Positions 5,429-27,517 of a DNA stretch of 33,704 nt are shown here, piece after piece; position 1 is the first letter of the stretch; each line of letters opens with the position of its first letter. Under the pieces are notes generated by a model that did not search any database, was not told where the DNA came from, and saw nothing but the letters and a program-made list of their open reading frames with translations. The DNA comes from Planctomycetaceae bacterium (GTDB taxonomy: Bacteria > Planctomycetota > Planctomycetia > Planctomycetales > Planctomycetaceae), in contig JANQQW010000315.1 of assembly GCA_028284885.1 (NCBI GenBank), forward strand, positions 1-33,704, in the 5' to 3' direction. Made by a program: the position numbers and the translations under genes.

Positions 5429-7837
5429 TTGGGCGACTTCGAGTACGACTTCTTCATCAGCCGCGCCGGGGCGGACAAGGAGGTCGCGGTCCGCATCGCC
5501 GACCTGCTCGTCGCGGCAGGGAGGAAGGTCTACATCCAGGACTACGACTTCGCGATTGGGCACGACTTCCTCGAACGGATGGAGAACGGACTCGGTCGGA
5601 GTCGACGGGTGCTCTCCGTCGTCTCGGAGGCGTACTTCGACGAGTCCCGGTTTACGTTGCCGGAGTTGCGGGCCGCGTTTCGCAAGGACCCCAGCGGCCG
5701 GGAGCGGCGGCTCGTCATCGTGCGCGCGGCCGACTGCACGATTCCAGACCCCTACGGCTCTCGGGTCTTCGATGACCTGTTCGACCGCGACGACGAGACG
5801 TTCGAGCAGACCGTCGCCGACTTGGCGGCGGCTTTCGGGGAGAACGTCTCGGAAGTGGCAGCGGAGAAGGTGTCGGCGACCGGGCCGTCGGTCTGGAACG
5901 TGCCGTTGCCGAACGAGCACTTCACCGGTCGGCGGGCGTTGCTGGACGAACTGGGACGGCGGCTGGACAGCGAGGCGACGATGGCCGTCACGCAGTCGGC
6001 CGCCATGCACGGGATGGGGGGCGTCGGCAAGACGCAGGTCGCCCTCCGCTTCTGCTACGAGCACGCGGCCGAGTACGACCTCGTCTGGTGGATCGACGCG
6101 GAGACGGAGGCCGAGACCGACTTCGCCGCGCTCGCCGACGAGGTCGGAGTCGAGGCGCCGCCCGGCACGGACCAGCGGGAGGTCGTCGCGGCCGTCCGGA
6201 AGGCGCTCGAACAACGGGACCGTTGGCTGCTCGTGTTCGACAACGCCGAGAAGCCGGAGGCGATCCGGGAGCTGCGGCCGCAGTTCGGCGGGCACGTCCT
6301 CGTCACGTCTCGCAACCCGAAGTGGGGGAAGACGGCCGGGACGCTGTCGGTCGAGACGTGGACGCGGCCCGAGAGCGTCGAGTTCCTCGCGACGGCGACC
6401 GGTCGCGACGAACCGGACGCGGCCGACGCGCTCGCCGCGGAGTTGGGGGACCTCCCGCTCGCGTTGGCCCAAGCGGCCGGCTACGTCGAGGCGACCGGCT
6501 TCACGCTCGCCGAGTACCTGGAGGAGTACCTGGACCGCCGTGAGGCGTTGTGGGCGCAGGAGGCCGCTCCGGAGGACTACGCGAAAACGGTGGCGACGAC
6601 CTGGGAGTTGTCACGGCAGGAGATCGGCGACGGCGTGGACGTGCTGCGACTCTGCGCGTTCCTGGCCCCGGAGGGCATCACCCGCGAACTGCTGGCGGCC
6701 CGTCCCGAGGCGTTGCCGAAGAAGCTCGCGAAGACGTTGACGGACGCCCTCGCGTTCAACAAGGTCGTCGCCCGACTGCGGCGGTTCTCGCTGGTGACGG
6801 CCGAAGGGGGCGTGCTGTCGGTCCACCGACTGCTGCAAGCGGTCGTCCGGGACGGGATCCGCAAGCAGGACCGCGAGGACTGGCTCGAGCGAGCGGCGAG
6901 AACGGTCTACGCGGCCGTCCCGTACGACCAGAACGTCCCCGAAACGTGGGGGCCCTCGGCGCAGATGGTGACACACGCGATGGCCGTCGACGGGCACGCG
7001 AAGACGGTCCGTTTGGAAGGCAATCCCGTGGGGCGTGCGCTCGACGAAAGTGGGCAGGCACTTCACGACTTGGGGCAATACTCGTTGGCGCGCGAAGTAC
7101 TCTTGAGCGCTGTTGAGGTCGCCAGAACGGACCTCGGCGACGAACACGTGGACGTCGCGACGAGTTGCTCGAATCTGGCGCTGGTGGAGAAGGACCTGGG
7201 GAACCTCGGGGAGGCGAAACGGCTGCTGGAACGGGCCGTCGAGAGCGGGACGGAGGCGTTCGAGGCGGACCACCCGACACTGGCGGTGAGGTACTCGAAT
7301 CTGGCGGTGGTGGAGCGGGACCTGGGGAACCTCGGGGAGGCGAAACGGCTGCTGGAACGGGCCATTGAGATCGAGGAGCAGGCGTTCGAGGCGGACCACC
7401 CAACGCTGGCGAGCAGCTACTCGAACCTGGCAATGGTGGAGCAGGGCCTGGGGAACGTCCGGGAGGCGAAACGGCTGATGGGACGGGCCGTCGAGATCGA
7501 GGAGCAGGCGTTTGCGGCGGACCACCCGACGCTGGCGGTCAGCTACTCGAACCTGGCGACGGTGGAGCAGGGCCTGGGGAACCTCGGGGAGGCGAAGCGG
7601 CTGCTGGAACGAGCCGTCGAGATCAAGGAGCGGGTGTTCGAGGCGGACCACCCATCGCTCGCGTTCACTTACAACAATCTCGCAGATGTTCTTTGGCGTC
7701 TTGGGGAGCATGACGCCGCGCGGTTGCACTGGCGCACGGCCTACCGGATCTTCTCGACGAGGCTCGGGGTTGAGCACCCGAACACGAAGGTCGTTGCCGA
7801 GTGGCTGCGGGCGTACGACCCCGACTTCGACGGCTGA
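5429..7837 (+). CDS. TIR - NB-ARC - TPR protein (bacterial NLR/STAND-type, candidate anti-phage sensor)
   Basis: About 802 aa from TTG 5429 (GGGG 8 nt upstream). GTG 5324 would add 35 residues of non-conserved sequence before the TIR strand. Residues 4-150: TIR domain (EYDFFISRAGADK, then DYDFAIGHDFLERME and SVVSEAYFDES), with Glu79 in the position expected for the NADase glutamate. Residues about 165-500: NB-ARC ATPase, with the entry motif FTGRRALLDEL, Walker A GMGGVGKT at 195-202, Walker B WLLVFDNAE, sensor LVTSRNPKW and a GLPL-type LGDLPLALAQAAGY. Residues about 540-795: kinesin-light-chain-like TPRs of 42 aa, four nearly identical. In characterised bacterial relatives, TPR recognition drives oligomerisation and TIR NAD+ cleavage. 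This protein's trigger is unknown. It stands alone between unrelated genes, with G+C like the host. It converges on the sigma gene with a 3-nt gap. Confidence 0.92.
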   Translation: MGDFEYDFFISRAGADKEVAVRIADLLVAAGRKVYIQDYDFAIGHDFLERMENGLGRSRRVLSVVSEAYFDESRFTLPELRAAFRKDPSGRERRLVIVRAADCTIPDPYGSRVFDDLFDRDDETFEQTVADLAAAFGENVSEVAAEKVSATGPSVWNVPLPNEHFTGRRALLDELGRRLDSEATMAVTQSAAMHGMGGVGKTQVALRFCYEHAAEYDLVWWIDAETEAETDFAALADEVGVEAPPGTDQREVVAAVRKALEQRDRWLLVFDNAEKPEAIRELRPQFGGHVLVTSRNPKWGKTAGTLSVETWTRPESVEFLATATGRDEPDAADALAAELGDLPLALAQAAGYVEATGFTLAEYLEEYLDRREALWAQEAAPEDYAKTVATTWELSRQEIGDGVDVLRLCAFLAPEGITRELLAARPEALPKKLAKTLTDALAFNKVVARLRRFSLVTAEGGVLSVHRLLQAVVRDGIRKQDREDWLERAARTVYAAVPYDQNVPETWGPSAQMVTHAMAVDGHAKTVRLEGNPVGRALDESGQALHDLGQYSLAREVLLSAVEVARTDLGDEHVDVATSCSNLALVEKDLGNLGEAKRLLERAVESGTEAFEADHPTLAVRYSNLAVVERDLGNLGEAKRLLERAIEIEEQAFEADHPTLASSYSNLAMVEQGLGNVREAKRLMGRAVEIEEQAFAADHPTLAVSYSNLATVEQGLGNLGEAKRLLERAVEIKERVFEADHPSLAFTYNNLADVLWRLGEHDAARLHWRTAYRIFSTRLGVEHPNTKVVAEWLRAYDPDFDG
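7171..7674 (+). repeat. Four tandem 126-bp direct repeats encoding TPR units
   Basis: Copies begin at 7171, 7297, 7423 and 7549, each exactly 126 bp (42 codons). They share long identical stretches such as gaggcgaaacggctgctgga and gaggcggaccaccc. A fifth, diverged unit follows from 7675. The high nucleotide identity between copies indicates recent duplication or gene conversion inside the gene. Confidence 0.93.
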
Positions 7838-7840
7838 CGC

Positions 7841-8491
7841 TCAGTCGAGGTCGGACTGGGGGGCGCGGAGGCTTTCGAAGAGGCTGTCGTCGCCGAGGAG
7901 CTTCTGCAGCTTCTGCAGCGAGCGGGTCAGCAGCACGCGGGTCGCGCCGTCGGTCCGGCCGAGGCGTTCGGCGATCTCCTTCGACGGCAGGTTCAGCACG
8001 TACCGCATACGGAGTGCCTCGCGGTTGTCGTCGGCGAGCTGCTCGAGGGCCTCGGCCAGCTTGAACTCCCGCTCGCCCCGCTTGAACGCACTGCTGGGCG
8101 TGGTCATCGTCACGGAGAGGACGTCGAGCAGGCCGCCCCCCTCGCCGCTGCGGCTGCCGGCCTGCAGGGCGACCTCCTTGTCCGCGTTCCGCTTCTGGGC
8201 GAAGAAGCGGCGGTGGGCGTCGATGATCCGCCGCTCGGCCAGTCGGCAGAGCCACGAGAACGGGTCGCGGTCGCCGAGCTCGATCTCGTCGAGGGCCGAC
8301 ATCGCCGAGAGAGCGACCTCCTGGAGGACGTCGTCCGGCTCGATCTTCCGCTTCAGCTGGTCGCTGGTGTTCTTCTCGATGAAGCTGAGCAGCGGCCGTC
8401 GCTTCAGTTCGAGGAACTCCGCCATCGCGTCCTCGTCACCCTGCTTCAGCCGGGCGACCAGTTCCTCCTCGGCAGCTTCGGCGTCGTCCAC
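7841..8491 (-). CDS. Sigma-70 family (ECF-type) RNA polymerase sigma factor
   Basis: 216 aa from GTG 8491. Region 2 spans about residues 10-95 (EPDDVLQEVALSAMSALDEI for core binding, then DPFSWLCRLAERRIIDAHRR for -10 recognition). After a linker, region 4 spans about 150-205 with a helix-turn-helix (LPSKEIAERLGRTDGATRVLLTRS). There is no region 1.1 or 3, so it is an ECF-like factor; it resembles the planctomycete ECF groups. It lies 36 nt downstream of the vWA membrane protein gene on the same strand and is probably co-transcribed, so the vWA protein is a candidate regulator of its activity (inference). A weak GAGA lies about 10 nt before the GTG. Confidence 0.9.
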   Translation of the reverse strand: MDDAEAAEEELVARLKQGDEDAMAEFLELKRRPLLSFIEKNTSDQLKRKIEPDDVLQEVALSAMSALDEIELGDRDPFSWLCRLAERRIIDAHRRFFAQKRNADKEVALQAGSRSGEGGGLLDVLSVTMTTPSSAFKRGEREFKLAEALEQLADDNREALRMRYVLNLPSKEIAERLGRTDGATRVLLTRSLQKLQKLLGDDSLFESLRAPQSDLD

Positions 8492-8527
8492 GGGGACGTC
8501 TCTCGGTGGCGAGGTTCGCGACGCGAC

Positions 8528-10546
8528 TCAGATCTTGATCCTGATCGGCGGCGCCGGGCGCTGGCGTCGCTCGACCATGCGGCGGCGGGGGTCGTCCGGG
8601 GCGAACTGCGGCCGGGGGCGGTTCTCGCCGTTGTTGTTCATCTGGCGACGGCCGGTGTTGATGACGACCTTCTTCGCCTCCTTCCACTGCCAGCCCATTG
8701 GCTGGCTGAGTTCCCGCTGGGCGAGGACGGCCCACGGCGTGCCGGGGTGCTCGTCGATGACGCGGCGGAGGTACTCCTCGGCCCGCTTGGCGAGCTTGCG
8801 GACCTTGGGGCCGCCGTCGATGTCGCGGGACGGCTCGAGGTGCCACTCGTTGCTGCCCTGCTTCTCGAAGGACCGCGGGGCGACCTTCATGCCGGCGAGC
8901 GCCTTGTCGTACCCCTCGGCCCGGGCCCGCATGGCGAGCAGCCGGCCGACGGCGAGGTCGTAGTTCGCCCGCCACCGCGGCTCCTCGATCTCGTCACGGG
9001 ACTTCTCCCCGGCGAGCAGGTGCGTCTCGATCTTCTCGAGCGGATACCGGAAGATCGCGAACGGCTCCTGGGCCTCCGCTAACTGCGTCCGCAGCACGTT
9101 GTCGTTCGGGGCGTCGAACACGCGCTGCGGCGTGGGGACGTCGAGGTTGGGGAGCTGGGCGTACGAGTAGGCCGTGCGGGCCTGTCCGAGCACGCCCTGC
9201 AGCAGCGTCGCCATCACCGGGTCGCGCTTCACGGCCGGGTCGAACATGGCGATGGTCGAGATGAGGGAGACCTTCGCCTCGTTCTTGGCGAGGTTCTCGA
9301 CGTACCGCTTGGGGGTCGAGTAGTCCGGGGCGTAGTTGCGGAGCACGTCGTGGTCGAAGCGGGGTCCGTTGGTGTCCTCGGTGACGAGGTACAGGCCGCC
9401 GGTCTCCACGCAGAGCCGCGTGAGGGCGTACGGGCCGAAGCCGGAGGACATGTTCCGCAGGTCGCGCGTGCCGACCGACCAGAAGGGGAGTTGGATCAGT
9501 TCGGGGAGGAAGGTCTCCGGGCCGGGCTCGAGGACGGCGGTGACGGTCTCGCCCTCGTACTCCCAGGGGATCTCGACTTCCTTGCGGCCGAACGGGGCGG
9601 CGTTGCCGACGACGTAGCAGCGGATGCTGTTTCGGCGGAGGAACTTCACGGTGTCCTCGACCTGCAGCTGGTCGGAGCCGGCCTCGTCCGTGACGACGAT
9701 GATCATCACCTCGCGCTTCCGCGAGCCGCGGCGGTAGCTCATGTGCTGCTGGGCGGCCAGCTTGACGGCGGTGAAGACGTTCTCCTCGCCGCTCGGCTCG
9801 GGCTCGATGCCGCGAATCGCCTCGACGACCGACTGCGGGTCGTCGACCGGGGACTCGGTGACGAGGGTGAAGTCCTTGCCGAACGCGGCCACGGAGGTGA
9901 CGAGCGAGTGCTGCGAGTCCGGCTCGAGCATGTCGAGCTGCTCGTACACGCGGCGGAAGCGGCTGGCGATCTGCTCGCGACGCTGGTTCACCGAGGGGGA
10001 CCGGTCGAACAGCCAGCAGACGACGGCACGGTCGTCCCGCAGCGTCGCGCGAATCTCCATCGTGATCCTGTCGACGGCACCGGGGACGCCGCCCGGGTGC
10101 TCGGTCGTGCCAGTCCGGTCGACGACGTCGGTCAGCTCGTTCCGGTTCGGCTCCTGCACCTGGTCCTGGGGCGGGATCTCGAGGTTGTCGAAGTCCTCGA
10201 CGATCGGCTCGACCTGCTGCTGCGGAGCCATGCCCTGGCGGGTGGCGCTCGCCAGCGACGGGCTCTGGCGGTTGAGCGTGCTGTCGCTGCCGATGACGTC
10301 GACGTCCGTGCTGTCGAGCTTGTAGTCGATCTCCTCTTCTTCCATCTCGCTGACGATGGTGGCGGAGAAGGGCTCGACGGTCTCCTGCACGATCCACGCG
10401 AGCGGCGCGAGGATGGCGACGTGGAGCATCATGCTGACGACCCAGGCCGGCGTGTCCCCGATCGACCAGCCTGCCTCCTCGTAGTACTCCTCGTACTCTT
10501 CGTCGGCCGACTCGTAGACGTCGATGCTGTTGGGCACGGAACTCAC
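8528..10546 (-). CDS. Membrane-anchored vWA-domain protein
   Basis: 672 aa from GTG 10546, with GGGAG about 7 nt upstream. Residues 1-33 are very acidic (runs of Glu and Tyr) and would be cytoplasmic; residues about 34-53 form a single transmembrane helix. The vWA domain begins at about 172: an intact MIDAS D181-x-S183-x-S185 and a VTDEAGSD strand indicate divalent-metal-dependent ligand binding. A helical region follows, and the end is a strongly basic, Pro-rich tail (many Arg, ending RIKI). Proteins of this layout recur in planctomycetes without known function. The gene is directly upstream of the sigma-factor gene on the same strand. The fold is clear; the role is inferred only from context. 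Confidence 0.87.
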   Translation of the reverse strand: MSSVPNSIDVYESADEEYEEYYEEAGWSIGDTPAWVVSMMLHVAILAPLAWIVQETVEPFSATIVSEMEEEEIDYKLDSTDVDVIGSDSTLNRQSPSLASATRQGMAPQQQVEPIVEDFDNLEIPPQDQVQEPNRNELTDVVDRTGTTEHPGGVPGAVDRITMEIRATLRDDRAVVCWLFDRSPSVNQRREQIASRFRRVYEQLDMLEPDSQHSLVTSVAAFGKDFTLVTESPVDDPQSVVEAIRGIEPEPSGEENVFTAVKLAAQQHMSYRRGSRKREVMIIVVTDEAGSDQLQVEDTVKFLRRNSIRCYVVGNAAPFGRKEVEIPWEYEGETVTAVLEPGPETFLPELIQLPFWSVGTRDLRNMSSGFGPYALTRLCVETGGLYLVTEDTNGPRFDHDVLRNYAPDYSTPKRYVENLAKNEAKVSLISTIAMFDPAVKRDPVMATLLQGVLGQARTAYSYAQLPNLDVPTPQRVFDAPNDNVLRTQLAEAQEPFAIFRYPLEKIETHLLAGEKSRDEIEEPRWRANYDLAVGRLLAMRARAEGYDKALAGMKVAPRSFEKQGSNEWHLEPSRDIDGGPKVRKLAKRAEEYLRRVIDEHPGTPWAVLAQRELSQPMGWQWKEAKKVVINTGRRQMNNNGENRPRPQFAPDDPRRRMVERRQRPAPPIRIKI

Positions 10547-15976: not shown

Positions 15977-16690
15977 GTGAACGTCACCGAAGTTCGCATC
16001 AAGCTGATGAACGACCCGCACGAGCGCCTGCTCGCGTTCTGCTCGATCACGCTCGACGACTGCTTCGTCGTGCGGGACCTGAAGATCATTCAGGGAACGC
16101 GGGGGGCCTTCGTCGCGATGCCCAGCCGCAAGCTGACGGACCACTGCGGCCGCTGCCACGCGAAGAACCACCTGCGGGCCCGGTTCTGCAGCGAGTGCGG
16201 TGCCCGACTCGACGAGACCCGCGCCGAGACCGAGGGGGCCAGCCGCACGAAGCTGTACGCCGACATCGCCCACCCGATCAACTCGGAGTGCCGGGAGGGG
16301 ATTCAGTCGGAGATCATCGCCGGCTACGAACGCGAACTCGTTCTCGCCGAGCAGCCCGGCTACTCGTGCACCTACGACGACTACGGGGAGGACCGGGTGG
16401 CCGCCGTCGCGGACGAACCGGACACCGTCCCCGTGAACGGCAACGGCAACGGCCATTCCCACTCGAACGGGAACGGGAACGGTTCGGCCACGACCCCTTC
16501 CGAGGTGACGGCCCCCGCCGCTCGACGGGACACGACCGAACCCCGGCGGCGCTTCGACTCGACGGACGAGCGGACGCACCGGATCGACCCGGGCAACCCC
16601 CGCTCGGTGGGGCCGCACGACCGCAACGGGACGCCGCAGCGAGCCCTCAGCCGCAACGGCGACGACGGCTTCGCCGAAGGAATCGCCTGA
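15977..16690 (+). CDS. spoVG: SpoVG-family RNA/DNA-binding regulator with inserted zinc ribbon
   Basis: 237 aa from GTG 15977, with GGAGGA 6 nt upstream. The SpoVG core is split. The first half ends at [10 protein letters not shown] (about 45-53), then a four-Cys zinc ribbon (C57-x2-C60, C71-x2-C74) is inserted, and the core resumes with [17 protein letters not shown] (about 94-110). Ordinary SpoVG proteins have a short loop at this point and are about 90-100 aa long. After the core comes a low-complexity tail with Asn-Gly and His-Ser-Asn repeats (about 145-165), then a basic disordered end. SpoVG proteins bind nucleic acid and act as global regulators. The zinc ribbon probably adds a nucleic-acid or protein contact (inference). 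It follows ispE and converges on the Hsp70 gene. Confidence 0.88.
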
Positions 16691-25225: not shown

Positions 25226-27517
25226 TTACGGAGCGACCGGTTCCGGGGGCAGCAGGGCCCCGGTCTCGTTGACGAACCGCAGCCAGCGACCGACCGACGA
25301 CTCGCGAACGTCCGTCCGGGCGTGAGGCTGGTAGTCGAAGTCCCGGCCGGTCAGCCGCCTGACGTGGAAGAAGGCGAGGTGCCGGATCGCCTCCTCCTCG
25401 TCGTTCAGCCAGCCGACGAGCAGCTGCGAGGTGACCGGGTTGCGGGCGTCCTCGGCGTCGAATCCCCAGAGAAGCCGGTAGACGTCCTCGGCCGTCTGCT
25501 CGGGGAAGTAGCGGGGGAACTCCGTCCGCAGCCTGGCCGCCACCTCCTTGGGCGACTGCCCGGTCATCCAGGTCCGCAGCCCGACGACCGCGGCCTGCCG
25601 GGCCTCGGCGTGCGGGGCCATGGCAAGGGCGTTGACGAGGGCGTCCTCGGCCCCGATCAGGTCCATCGTGCGGACCGCGTACATCGAGATGTCCGGGTCG
25701 TCGTCCTTCACGATCGGCTCGATGCTGTGCTGCACGGTGTCCGCCAGCCCGAACTCGCGCTCGAACTGGATGCGGGCCTGACGCAGCGCGGAGGACAGGA
25801 TGCGGCGTCCGCCGGCGAGCCAGTCCGGCATCACCGGGGCGGCCGGCATCGGCAGCAGCGGCACGGCACCGGGCGCCTCGAGCGGCCACTCGTCGGGCAT
25901 CAGCGAGACCGCGTAGTTCGGCTGACGGAGCAGCACGGACCGCCCGTCGTTCTGGCCCGCCTCGCCGTCTCCGCGGGGGGGCAGGTCGAGGGCGACCAGC
26001 TGGCACTGCCCCTTCACCACGTACAGGGCGGCCGGCCGCGAGGTCGGGTCGAACGGCTCCTCGTACCCGGTCGGGCCGAGCGGGAACCCGTTCCGGTCGG
26101 TCGAGTCGACGGCGATCCCGCAGCGGCTGCTCGCGTCGAGCCGCAGGGCGTAGCGTCGGCCGTGCACCACGAACTCGCAGTCGACCGGTTGACGGGGATC
26201 GCCCCCCGTCCGCTCGACGACGACGCGTCCGCGCTCGAGCTCGAACGAGGCGACCGCTCCCTCGGGCGTCGCCCGGGCCCGCAGTCGCGAGCCGCCCAGC
26301 ATCTCGATCTTCAGCAGCCGCGGCACCACGAGCGACGACTCGAACGGCTCGGGGCAGGCGAGCCCCTCGCCGGCGTGGATCACCGACCGCTTCGGCAGCA
26401 GCTTCCAGTTCGTGACGGTCACCTCCTCGTCCTCGATCGTCTCCTGCTCCTCGACCGTGTGCACGAGCACCCCGGAGATCGCCTCGTAGATCAGGCTGGT
26501 CGGCTCGGGCATCGGGGCGGCGGGCGGCTCGGGCTTCACCTCGCCCTCCCGCGGCGGCACGGGCACGTTCTCCCCCACTCCCGCGGGCGGCTTCGTCCCA
26601 CCGGGAGCGCCGGCGACCTCGACGGGGGGCGTGTTGCCCGTGCCCGGCTCGTCGTCCGGCGGCGGGGGGTTGATGCCGGCCACCGGAGGCAGCCCGTCCA
26701 TCGGGTTCTCCCCGCCGCCGACTTCGGTCGTCGCCGGTTCACCCGAGCCGATGTTGTTCCCGCCGACGCCGCCGACCTGCGTCCCCGCACCGTCGTTCCC
26801 GCCGGCCTCCGGTCCTCGGCCGCCGTCACCCGGGTTGCCGCCGTTCTCGTCGGACTCGGGGGTCCCTTCCTCGCCGTTGGCGGCGACCTGCTCGCCGCCG
26901 GGGTTGGCCGCCGGGCGGCCGAACGGGTTCAGCGACGGGTCGAAGTAGACCAGCGCGAACCACAGGCAGGCGACGCCGCCGACCACGAGGAACGGCAGGG
27001 CCTTCCGCAGCGGAGCGTTCCGCCGTTCGTAGTCCTCGCGGAGGTAGTCGGGCAGTTGCGACTCGAACTTCGACGACTCCGGCTGCGACTTGGCGGCCGG
27101 CTGCTCGGCTGCCTCGAGTTGCGGGGCCTTCGTCAGCGGGCCGAGCGCGTAGGCCCGTTCGCGACGTTCCTCGGGGACGTTGACAGCCTCGCCCAGCACG
27201 AGCGTGAGAATCTGGTGGCTCGCGGCGACCTCGGCGAGGTGCAGGTCGGACTCCAGGCAGATCCGCTCCACGTCGGCGACGCTCGTCGGCGAGAGGGTGT
27301 TGTCGAGGTACTCGGCGACCGTGTTCGGGTCGAGCCCCATGTCGGGTCCGCTCACGTCGGGGGCCCCCAGCCGTCGCCGCCGCATCACGTCCTTGATCCG
27401 CTGCAGCAGTTCGCGGGCGACCTCGCTCTCCTGGAGTTTCTGGCCGATCTCCCGGGCCTGGGCGGGCTCCAGGATGTCGTCGGCGTAGGCCAGCAGCGTG
27501 CGGAGGGTGAGTCGCAT
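25226..27517 (-). CDS. Membrane protein with tandem anti-sigma-like N-terminal repeats and HEAT-like C-terminus
   Basis: 763 aa from ATG 27517. Two related helical units (about 8-48 and 66-106; motifs LLAYADDILEPAQAREIGQKL and VAEYLDNTLSPTSVADVERI) resemble the zinc-less anti-sigma-like module found in many planctomycete membrane proteins. One transmembrane helix lies at about 173-192. A Gly/Pro/Asn-rich linker (about 197-335) precedes an extracytoplasmic beta-rich domain (about 345-500). A helical region with HEAT-like pairs (about 565-720) follows. The function is unknown; the anti-sigma label is an analogy. It lies 144 nt downstream of the SpoIIE-type phosphatase gene on the same strand, and SpoIIE phosphatases often act on anti-sigma circuits, so a link is plausible. 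The ribosome site is weak. Confidence 0.78.
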   Translation of the reverse strand: MRLTLRTLLAYADDILEPAQAREIGQKLQESEVARELLQRIKDVMRRRRLGAPDVSGPDMGLDPNTVAEYLDNTLSPTSVADVERICLESDLHLAEVAASHQILTLVLGEAVNVPEERRERAYALGPLTKAPQLEAAEQPAAKSQPESSKFESQLPDYLREDYERRNAPLRKALPFLVVGGVACLWFALVYFDPSLNPFGRPAANPGGEQVAANGEEGTPESDENGGNPGDGGRGPEAGGNDGAGTQVGGVGGNNIGSGEPATTEVGGGENPMDGLPPVAGINPPPPDDEPGTGNTPPVEVAGAPGGTKPPAGVGENVPVPPREGEVKPEPPAAPMPEPTSLIYEAISGVLVHTVEEQETIEDEEVTVTNWKLLPKRSVIHAGEGLACPEPFESSLVVPRLLKIEMLGGSRLRARATPEGAVASFELERGRVVVERTGGDPRQPVDCEFVVHGRRYALRLDASSRCGIAVDSTDRNGFPLGPTGYEEPFDPTSRPAALYVVKGQCQLVALDLPPRGDGEAGQNDGRSVLLRQPNYAVSLMPDEWPLEAPGAVPLLPMPAAPVMPDWLAGGRRILSSALRQARIQFEREFGLADTVQHSIEPIVKDDDPDISMYAVRTMDLIGAEDALVNALAMAPHAEARQAAVVGLRTWMTGQSPKEVAARLRTEFPRYFPEQTAEDVYRLLWGFDAEDARNPVTSQLLVGWLNDEEEAIRHLAFFHVRRLTGRDFDYQPHARTDVRESSVGRWLRFVNETGALLPPEPVAP

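What the first reader, a model, noticed from the sequence alone, without database searches (positions are those of the whole stretch)
5429..7837. Stand-alone TIR - NB-ARC - TPR protein resembling a bacterial NLR immune receptor
Seen: a TIR domain with a Glu at the NADase position, a complete NB-ARC ATPase and a TPR array in one polypeptide, with no partner gene. Known: bacterial STAND proteins with TIR effectors can cause abortive infection by NAD+ depletion after the sensor part binds a phage product. Inferred: this is a single-gene defence system whose trigger is read by the near-identical TPRs. The domain set is like plant TNLs, but with TPRs instead of LRRs.
Basis: partly seen in the sequence, partly recalled or inferred. 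Interest (0 to 1): 0.62.

Follow-up and report, generated by a model that had tools for sequence, protein, structure and literature searches.

The report
Bacterial TIR-NLR with exchanged sensor module
This planctomycete gene encodes a one-protein immune receptor of a known type (NAD-cleaving TIR domain, ATP switch, repeat sensor), and comparison with its sister genes shows that the sensor half has been exchanged between receptors, as seen before in fungal but, to our knowledge, not bacterial relatives.

Summary
In detail: window 5429-7837 (+) encodes 802 residues with an N-terminal TIR, an NB-ARC/winged-helix switch with all motifs, and a 42-residue (kinesin-light-chain type) TPR array. Glu79 is invariant in ten TIRs and aligns with the catalytic Glu of bacterial TIR NADases. 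The gene is stand-alone but not unique: the same genome holds most likely three further paralogues (two split over contig ends), each beside unrelated housekeeping genes. The architecture is known: the P4-satellite TIR-NLR that protects E. coli is also TIR-STAND-TPR; NCBI's 'FxSxx_TPR' model matches too, although the FxSxx maturase is absent from this genome. A whole sensor module was exchanged, and TPR units were homogenised among three paralogues. Variation between repeats is concentrated at positions expected to line the groove (P=0.015), but positive selection is not statistically shown. Most likely function: an abortive-infection receptor that depletes NAD+ when its TPR groove binds a foreign protein. 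Defence is inferred, not shown.

The parts
5429..7837 (+). TIR - NB-ARC - winged helix - TPR protein, 802 aa
   Evidence: open frame, Pfam, NF040586 440 bits, AlphaFold model pLDDT 85.4
5429..5836 (+). TIR domain (residues 1-136)
   Evidence: TIR_2 4.7e-21; model pLDDT 83.7, Foldseek hits AbTir 7uxu TM 0.75/0.80, MyD88, PdTIR, RPP1
5663..5665 (+). Glu79, putative NADase catalytic residue, near the start of helix 76-86
   Evidence: invariant in 10 TIRs; aligns with the Glu of the WPxxEL motif in PdTIR/TcpB
5909..6628 (+). NB-ARC NTPase (residues 161-400): P-loop 6011-6034, Walker B 6227-6244, VLVTSR 6296-6313, GLPL-like 6443-6466
   Evidence: Pfam NB-ARC, motif positions, motifs kept in paralogues
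6629..6880 (+). winged-helix/ARC2 region with MHD-like SVHRLLQ (6818-6838)
   Evidence: DUF7779 1.9e-8; alignment
6818..6820 (+). exchange junction: best breakpoint (residue 464) between divergent 5' part and near-identical 3' part shared with paralogue C202
   Evidence: 2lnLR 172 against a maximum of 18.5 in 200 permutations
6881..7834 (+). sensor module: helical lead (residues 485-578) and TPR array
   Evidence: residues 485-620 dS 0.05 to C202 against 0.89 for residues 1-455
7163..7666 (+). four near-identical 42-aa TPR units (residues 579-746)
   Evidence: TRF 7168-7667 period 126; units listed

Best explanation
A single-gene STAND/NLR-type immune receptor. In the resting state the NB-ARC/winged-helix part holds ADP and keeps the TIR monomeric. 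The C-terminal KLC-type TPR superhelix binds a stretch of a foreign (probably phage) protein in its concave groove; this opens the switch, ATP binds, the protein oligomerises and the clustered TIRs cleave NAD+ through Glu79, stopping growth of the infected cell. The genome keeps about four such receptors at scattered loci, and their specificity changes by exchange of whole sensor modules (junction at the MHD-like motif) and of TPR units between paralogues. Shown by sequence here: architecture, intact motifs, conserved Glu, paralogue family, module exchange, unit homogenisation. Inferred: NADase activity, oligomerisation, ligand type, anti-phage role.
For: Domains and motifs; TIR fold closest to MyD88/PdTIR/AbTir, with plant RPP1 among the hits; Glu79 invariant; full-length model matches a STAND-TPR protein 6mfv, TIR-NLR RPP1, Apaf-1, CED-4, Avs3 bound to phage terminase, and KLC1-TPR bound to cargo peptides. 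The same NB-ARC-TPR core carries other N-terminal domains in relatives (SEFIR, trypsin-like, none, more divergent TIR), the usual NLR pattern. Sporadic distribution: NB-ARC core in 17 of 298 genomes of the class, close TIR in 4 of 392 of the phylum. Homologues on plasmids lie near a restriction endonuclease (L062), an abortive-infection family gene (L063) and a NACHT gene (L064). Sensor exchange. Between-unit variation is higher at groove positions 2, 5, 9, 12, 13 (P=0.015). A TIR-STAND-TPR single gene is a tested anti-phage system (PMC9122126).
Against: The window and the paralogue loci are housekeeping neighbourhoods, not defence islands. No PADLOC model covers the architecture (only TIR-part hits). 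No match in 50,697 phage records. Diversifying selection is not significant (dN/dS 1.4 for residues 485-620, P=0.34); the ratio of 2.1 at three hypervariable positions is post hoc. Self/non-self recognition between cells rather than phage sensing would leave the same marks.
Confidence: 0.62

Rival explanations
1. A receptor for self/non-self recognition or developmental cell death among planctomycete cells, like fungal NB-ARC/TPR incompatibility NLRs, rather than a phage sensor.
For: The closest evolutionary parallel is fungal NLRs: KLC-type TPRs with high internal identity, exchange between members, variable positions on the concave side (PMC4986451); related conflict systems favour multicellular or aggregating bacteria (PMC7159879).
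Against: The only tested bacterial protein of the same architecture that I found is anti-phage; plasmid-borne homologues sit with restriction and abortive-infection genes.
Confidence: 0.15
2. An FxsT-type component of an FxSxx-COOH peptide-modification system, with a regulatory role rather than a stand-alone defence role.
For: NF040586 FxSxx_TPR 440 bits against a cut-off of 300; C229 380 bits.
Against: The FxsB maturase family reaches only 23.6 bits in this genome (cut-off 370; 11 of 14 control genomes also ring below cut-off); no FxSxx, VMAP or MoxR gene among the neighbours identified; plasmid relatives annotated fxsT have no FxsA/FxsB beside them, so the model catches the NB-ARC-TPR core, not the system.
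Confidence: 0.03
3. A TIR-STAND signalling regulator (AfsR/SARP-like) that uses the TIR as an oligomerisation scaffold without NAD+ cleavage.
For: The NB-ARC region gives weak matches to the AfsR model; some TIRs are scaffolds only (general knowledge).
Against: No DNA-binding domain; Glu79 invariant; best structural hits include the NADase AbTir.
Confidence: 0.1
4. The sensor exchange is an assembly artefact (chimeric contigs), and the gene is an ordinary member of the family.
For: The draft has 399 contigs and several paralogues end inside the repeats.
Against: At the junction the two genes share no exact run of 25 nt or more until residue 494, short for the usual assembly overlaps; the shared part still differs by about 5% at many sites; homology with C206 ends at the stop codon, so the flanks differ.
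Confidence: 0.07

Closest known systems
TIR-NLR defence system of P4-like satellites (Rousset et al. 2022, PMC9122126)
   Same: Single gene, N-terminal TIR, central STAND NTPase, C-terminal TPRs; protects E. coli against phages
   Different: Host lineage (planctomycete chromosome, not a satellite); sequence relation not tested here because that protein's sequence was not at hand; no activity data for the window protein
NF040586 FxSxx_TPR / fxsT proteins and the TIR-AP-ATPase-TPR of actinobacterial VMAP/FxSxx loci (Kaur et al. 2020, PMC7159879)
   Same: Homologous NB-ARC-TPR core; the actinobacterial version can also carry an N-terminal TIR
   Different: No FxsB in the genome, no FxSxx/VMAP/MoxR neighbours; stand-alone paralogue family
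Fungal NB-ARC/TPR NLRs of Podospora (Dyrka et al. 2014, PMC4986451)
   Same: KLC-type TPRs (PF13374) with near-identical units; exchange within and between family members; variable sites on the concave face
   Different: Fungal N-terminal domains are different (e.g. sesB-like, PNP_UDP, HET); positive selection and repeat-number polymorphism are shown there, not here
Plant TIR-NB-ARC-LRR receptors (such as RPP1)
   Same: TIR-NB-ARC order; model matches RPP1
   Different: TPRs instead of LRRs; bacterial
Avs (AVAST) STAND receptors
   Same: STAND switch with C-terminal repeat sensor; Foldseek match to Avs3 with phage terminase
   Different: Much smaller; different effector; only a partial, low-TM structural match

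Membership tests
Single-gene TIR-STAND-TPR (TIR-NLR) defence proteins | N-terminal TIR, central STAND NTPase, C-terminal TPRs in one polypeptide | tested here: met
Single-gene TIR-STAND-TPR (TIR-NLR) defence proteins | no partner gene | tested here: met
   divergent/convergent unrelated neighbours here, and unrelated neighbours at the paralogues
Single-gene TIR-STAND-TPR (TIR-NLR) defence proteins | match to a curated defence model of this system | tested here: inconclusive
   PADLOC gives only TIR-part hits; it is not known whether the library holds a TIR-NLR model
Single-gene TIR-STAND-TPR (TIR-NLR) defence proteins | protection against phage | not testable with these tools
   needs plaque assays
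TIR NADases | TIR fold | tested here: met
   model pLDDT 83.7, AbTir 7uxu TM 0.75/0.80
TIR NADases | catalytic Glu at the start of helix alphaC | tested here: met
   Glu79 in helix 76-86, invariant in 10, aligned to the PdTIR/TcpB Glu
TIR NADases | NAD+ cleavage | not testable with these tools
   needs enzyme assay
FxSxx-COOH system (FxsT) | NF040586 score above cut-off | tested here: met
   440 bits against 300
FxSxx-COOH system (FxsT) | FxsB radical SAM maturase in the genome | tested here: not met
   23.6 bits against a cut-off of 370, as in control genomes
FxSxx-COOH system (FxsT) | FxSxx precursor / VMAP ternary genes adjacent | tested here: not met
   neighbour annotation; the vWA gene 8528-10546 has no recognised MoxR/VMAP partner and follows an ECF sigma factor on the opposite strand. 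A very short precursor gene could be missed
Plant TNL | TIR and NB-ARC | tested here: met
Plant TNL | LRR domain | tested here: not met
   TPR instead
Thoeris / TIR two-component systems | separate effector gene beside the TIR gene | tested here: not met
   no ThsA-like neighbour
NLR repertoire with concerted evolution of repeats (fungal type) | near-identical repeats exchanged between paralogues | tested here: met
NLR repertoire with concerted evolution of repeats (fungal type) | positive selection at concave positions | tested here: inconclusive
   excess variability P=0.015; dN/dS 1.4 not significant

The most novel reading that the evidence does not exclude
A bacterial genome maintains a small repertoire of TIR-NB-ARC-TPR receptors whose specificity is renewed by gene conversion: complete sensor modules are transplanted onto different TIR-NB-ARC signalling halves at the MHD motif, and single TPR units are shuffled among members, a bacterial counterpart of the fungal NLR diversification process without a retroelement.
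Probability: 0.6. Interest if true: 0.68.

Novelty: new member of a known kind. Interest (0 to 1): 0.5.

Why it matters
The protein itself is a further TIR-STAND-TPR receptor. The wider point is how bacteria renew receptor specificity: diversity-generating retroelements are one described way (PMC10907252); here a family of about four receptors in one genome shows exchange of sensor modules between signalling halves, as in fungal NLRs. The natural pair of this gene and C202 (two different signalling halves, one sensor type) shows where such a receptor can be cut and rejoined and gives a ready experiment.

Tried and rejected
Longer start GTG 5324: rejected, paralogues start at the TTG-equivalent place. 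An apparent 780-aa N-terminal extension of C229: judged spurious, since it carries no domain and runs into the ATP-sulfurylase gene on the other strand. FxSxx-COOH system membership: rejected. VMAP/vWA partnership with window 8528-10546: no supporting gene. Phage or viral copy: no match in phages; three IMG/VR contigs with NB-ARC-only similarity of 28-35%. Joining C202 to C206 and C184 to C112: plausible from positions but no contig overlap proves it. A test for positive selection in the exchanged block was not significant. Two TIR receptors of another genome (G059) are close throughout and show no clear sensor exchange, though both have near-identical repeats. Literature searches for repeat exchange in bacterial NLRs gave no report, which covers only the held library.

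Full report
OBSERVATION. The frame 5429-7837 (+) is open for 802 residues with coding-type base composition (GC3 0.89). Pfam places TIR_2 first (E 4.7e-21), then NB-ARC (3.4e-6, above its cut-off), DUF7779 (1.9e-8; the winged-helix region) and TPR_12/TPR_10 repeats (4.7e-61, 4.1e-47) (the scan used the longer frame from 5324, so its residue numbers are 35 higher). NB-ARC motifs are complete: GMGGVGKT 195-202, LLVFDN 267-272, VLVTSR 290-295, LGDLPLAL 339-346, SVHR at the MHD place 464-467. The repeats form a 126-bp tandem array, 4.0 copies, 87% matches.

TIR AND Glu79. Closest solved structures by sequence are bacterial TIRs (PdTIR 3h16, TcpB/BtpA, AbTir); Glu79 aligns with the Glu of their WPxxEL motif, the NADase catalytic residue by established knowledge. 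Among ten TIRs from own paralogues and distant relatives, only F9, D16, L27, S66 and E79 are invariant. A model of the TIR (pLDDT 83.7) puts Glu79 near the start of helix 76-86 and matches AbTir in its 3AD complex (TM 0.75/0.80), MyD88, PdTIR and plant RPP1.

WHOLE PROTEIN. The full-length model (pLDDT 85.4, pTM 0.70) matches a STAND-TPR protein (6mfv), plant TIR-NLR RPP1, Apaf-1, CED-4, Avs3 bound to phage terminase, and KLC1 TPR domains bound to cargo peptides; also a Podospora protein with nearly identical TPR-like repeats (4y6w).

NEIGHBOURS. A divergent 3-keto-disaccharide hydrolase gene and a convergent ECF sigma factor flank it, with DusB, vWA, redoxin, hydrolase, pyruvate kinase and glycogen debranching genes around. 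There is no defence island and no partner gene.

PARALOGUES. The genome (6.47 Mb, 399 contigs) holds related genes on C229 (complete; 52% identity), C202 (5' part, contig ends in the TPRs), C206 (TPR part from a contig end), C184 (5' part) and C112 (3' part), most simply four genes in all with the window's. All have unrelated neighbours: ATP sulfurylase and a cNMP-binding/4Fe-4S protein, DUF1559, an EF-Tu-type GTPase, a SpoIIE phosphatase, HEAT and sulfatase. The next best matches outside the genome are near 40% identity, so this is a lineage-specific family. The 126-bp unit occurs nowhere else in the genome except one marginal short match. The genome has 16 TIR_2 places in all.

SENSOR EXCHANGE. 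Compared with C202, residues 1-455 of the window protein have dS 0.89 (fourfold sites near saturation), residues 485-620 have dS 0.05. The best breakpoint is residue 464, at the MHD-like motif; divergence falls from 36% to 7%, 2lnLR 172 against a maximum of 18.5 in 200 permutations. Groupings conflict: for the TIR and for the first part of the NB-ARC, C202 groups with C229 (998 and 996 of 1000 bootstraps); for residues 485-575 C202 groups with the window gene (1000 of 1000). With C112, only TPR residues 590-710 are close (dS 0.22) while both flanks are near saturation (0.90 and 1.20). Exact shared runs near the junction are below 25 nt up to residue 494, so an assembler join at that point is unlikely; homology to C206 ends at the stop codon. 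A caveat is that this is a draft assembly and no reads were available.

REPEAT VARIATION. Ten high-scoring units from four contigs are invariant or nearly so at most positions, including the Asn at canonical position 6 (an 'asparagine ladder' position in peptide-binding TPRs such as OGT and KLC; from general knowledge). Variation is concentrated at unit positions 29, 39 and 42, then 7, 16, 10, 11, 31, 34. The canonical groove positions 2, 5, 9, 12, 13 (unit 42, 3, 7, 10, 11; mapping from general knowledge) are more variable than average (entropy 1.34 against 0.60, permutation P=0.015; units are not independent). dN/dS in the exchanged block is 1.4 (P=0.34), so positive selection is suggested only. 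C229, which shows no recent unit exchange, has Asn at that place in only one of its five units.

RELATIVES. The NB-ARC core occurs in 17 of 298 genomes of the class, with other N-terminal domains in relatives: more divergent TIR, SEFIR, trypsin-like, or none. Near-identical adjacent units recur (94-98% in G059, 96% in G258, 94% in Prosthecochloris), but not in all. Homologues on plasmids lie near a restriction endonuclease and recombinase (Prosthecochloris), a second fxsT and an abortive-infection gene (Methylobacterium) and a NACHT gene (Streptomyces). Some planctomycete relatives adjoin LRR/Roc-COR proteins or a DNA methyltransferase, others housekeeping genes. So orthologues do not sit in one constant non-defence operon.

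KNOWN SYSTEMS. Rousset et al. 2022 tested a single-gene TIR-STAND-TPR protein from P4-like satellites that protects E. coli (PMC9122126). Kaur et al. 2020 describe TIR-AP-ATPase-TPR proteins next to FxSxx loci in actinobacteria (PMC7159879). NF040586 matches here at 440 bits but FxsB is absent: family by sequence yes, FxSxx system no. Fungal NB-ARC/TPR NLRs show the same repeat exchange with variable concave sites (PMC4986451). DGR-based diversification of bacterial sensors is another route (PMC10907252). I found no report of repeat or sensor exchange between bacterial NLR paralogues in the held library, which is not proof of absence.

VERDICT. The gene is real and of a known kind; anti-phage NADase function is the best explanation (0.62) but untested. 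The added value is the evidence that bacterial receptors of this kind exchange their sensor modules.

Noticed in passing
L062:1325-10340 (Prosthecochloris plasmid pPAES01): A full-length TIR-NB-ARC-TPR homologue lies on a conjugative plasmid with a restriction endonuclease and, about 5 kb away, a diversity-generating retroelement (avd and reverse transcriptase).
   Followed up: no
L067:1705-5555 and L068:10183-13911: Two TIR-NB-ARC-TPR genes of one planctomycete relative (G059) each adjoin leucine-rich-repeat and Roc-COR coding sequence (LRR-Roc-COR), another eukaryote-like switch protein.
   Followed up: partly
G000:C119:4196-6320: Three TIR_2 domains close together in the window's own genome; 16 TIR_2 places in the genome in all.
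   Followed up: no
window 15977-16690: SpoVG domain with a zinc ribbon inside its span (SpoVG match 1-118 of 237 aa, zinc ribbon at 56-78).
   Followed up: no
window 25226-27517: 763-aa minus-strand gene with good coding composition and no Pfam or NCBIfam match.
   Followed up: no
L043:583-2631: A 41%-identical NB-ARC-TPR relative (G029) is interrupted by one TGA stop, a likely pseudogene or assembly error.
   Followed up: no
window 7841-10546: ECF sigma factor followed on the same strand by a vWA protein without any defence-model match; a possible sigma/vWA pair.
   Followed up: no
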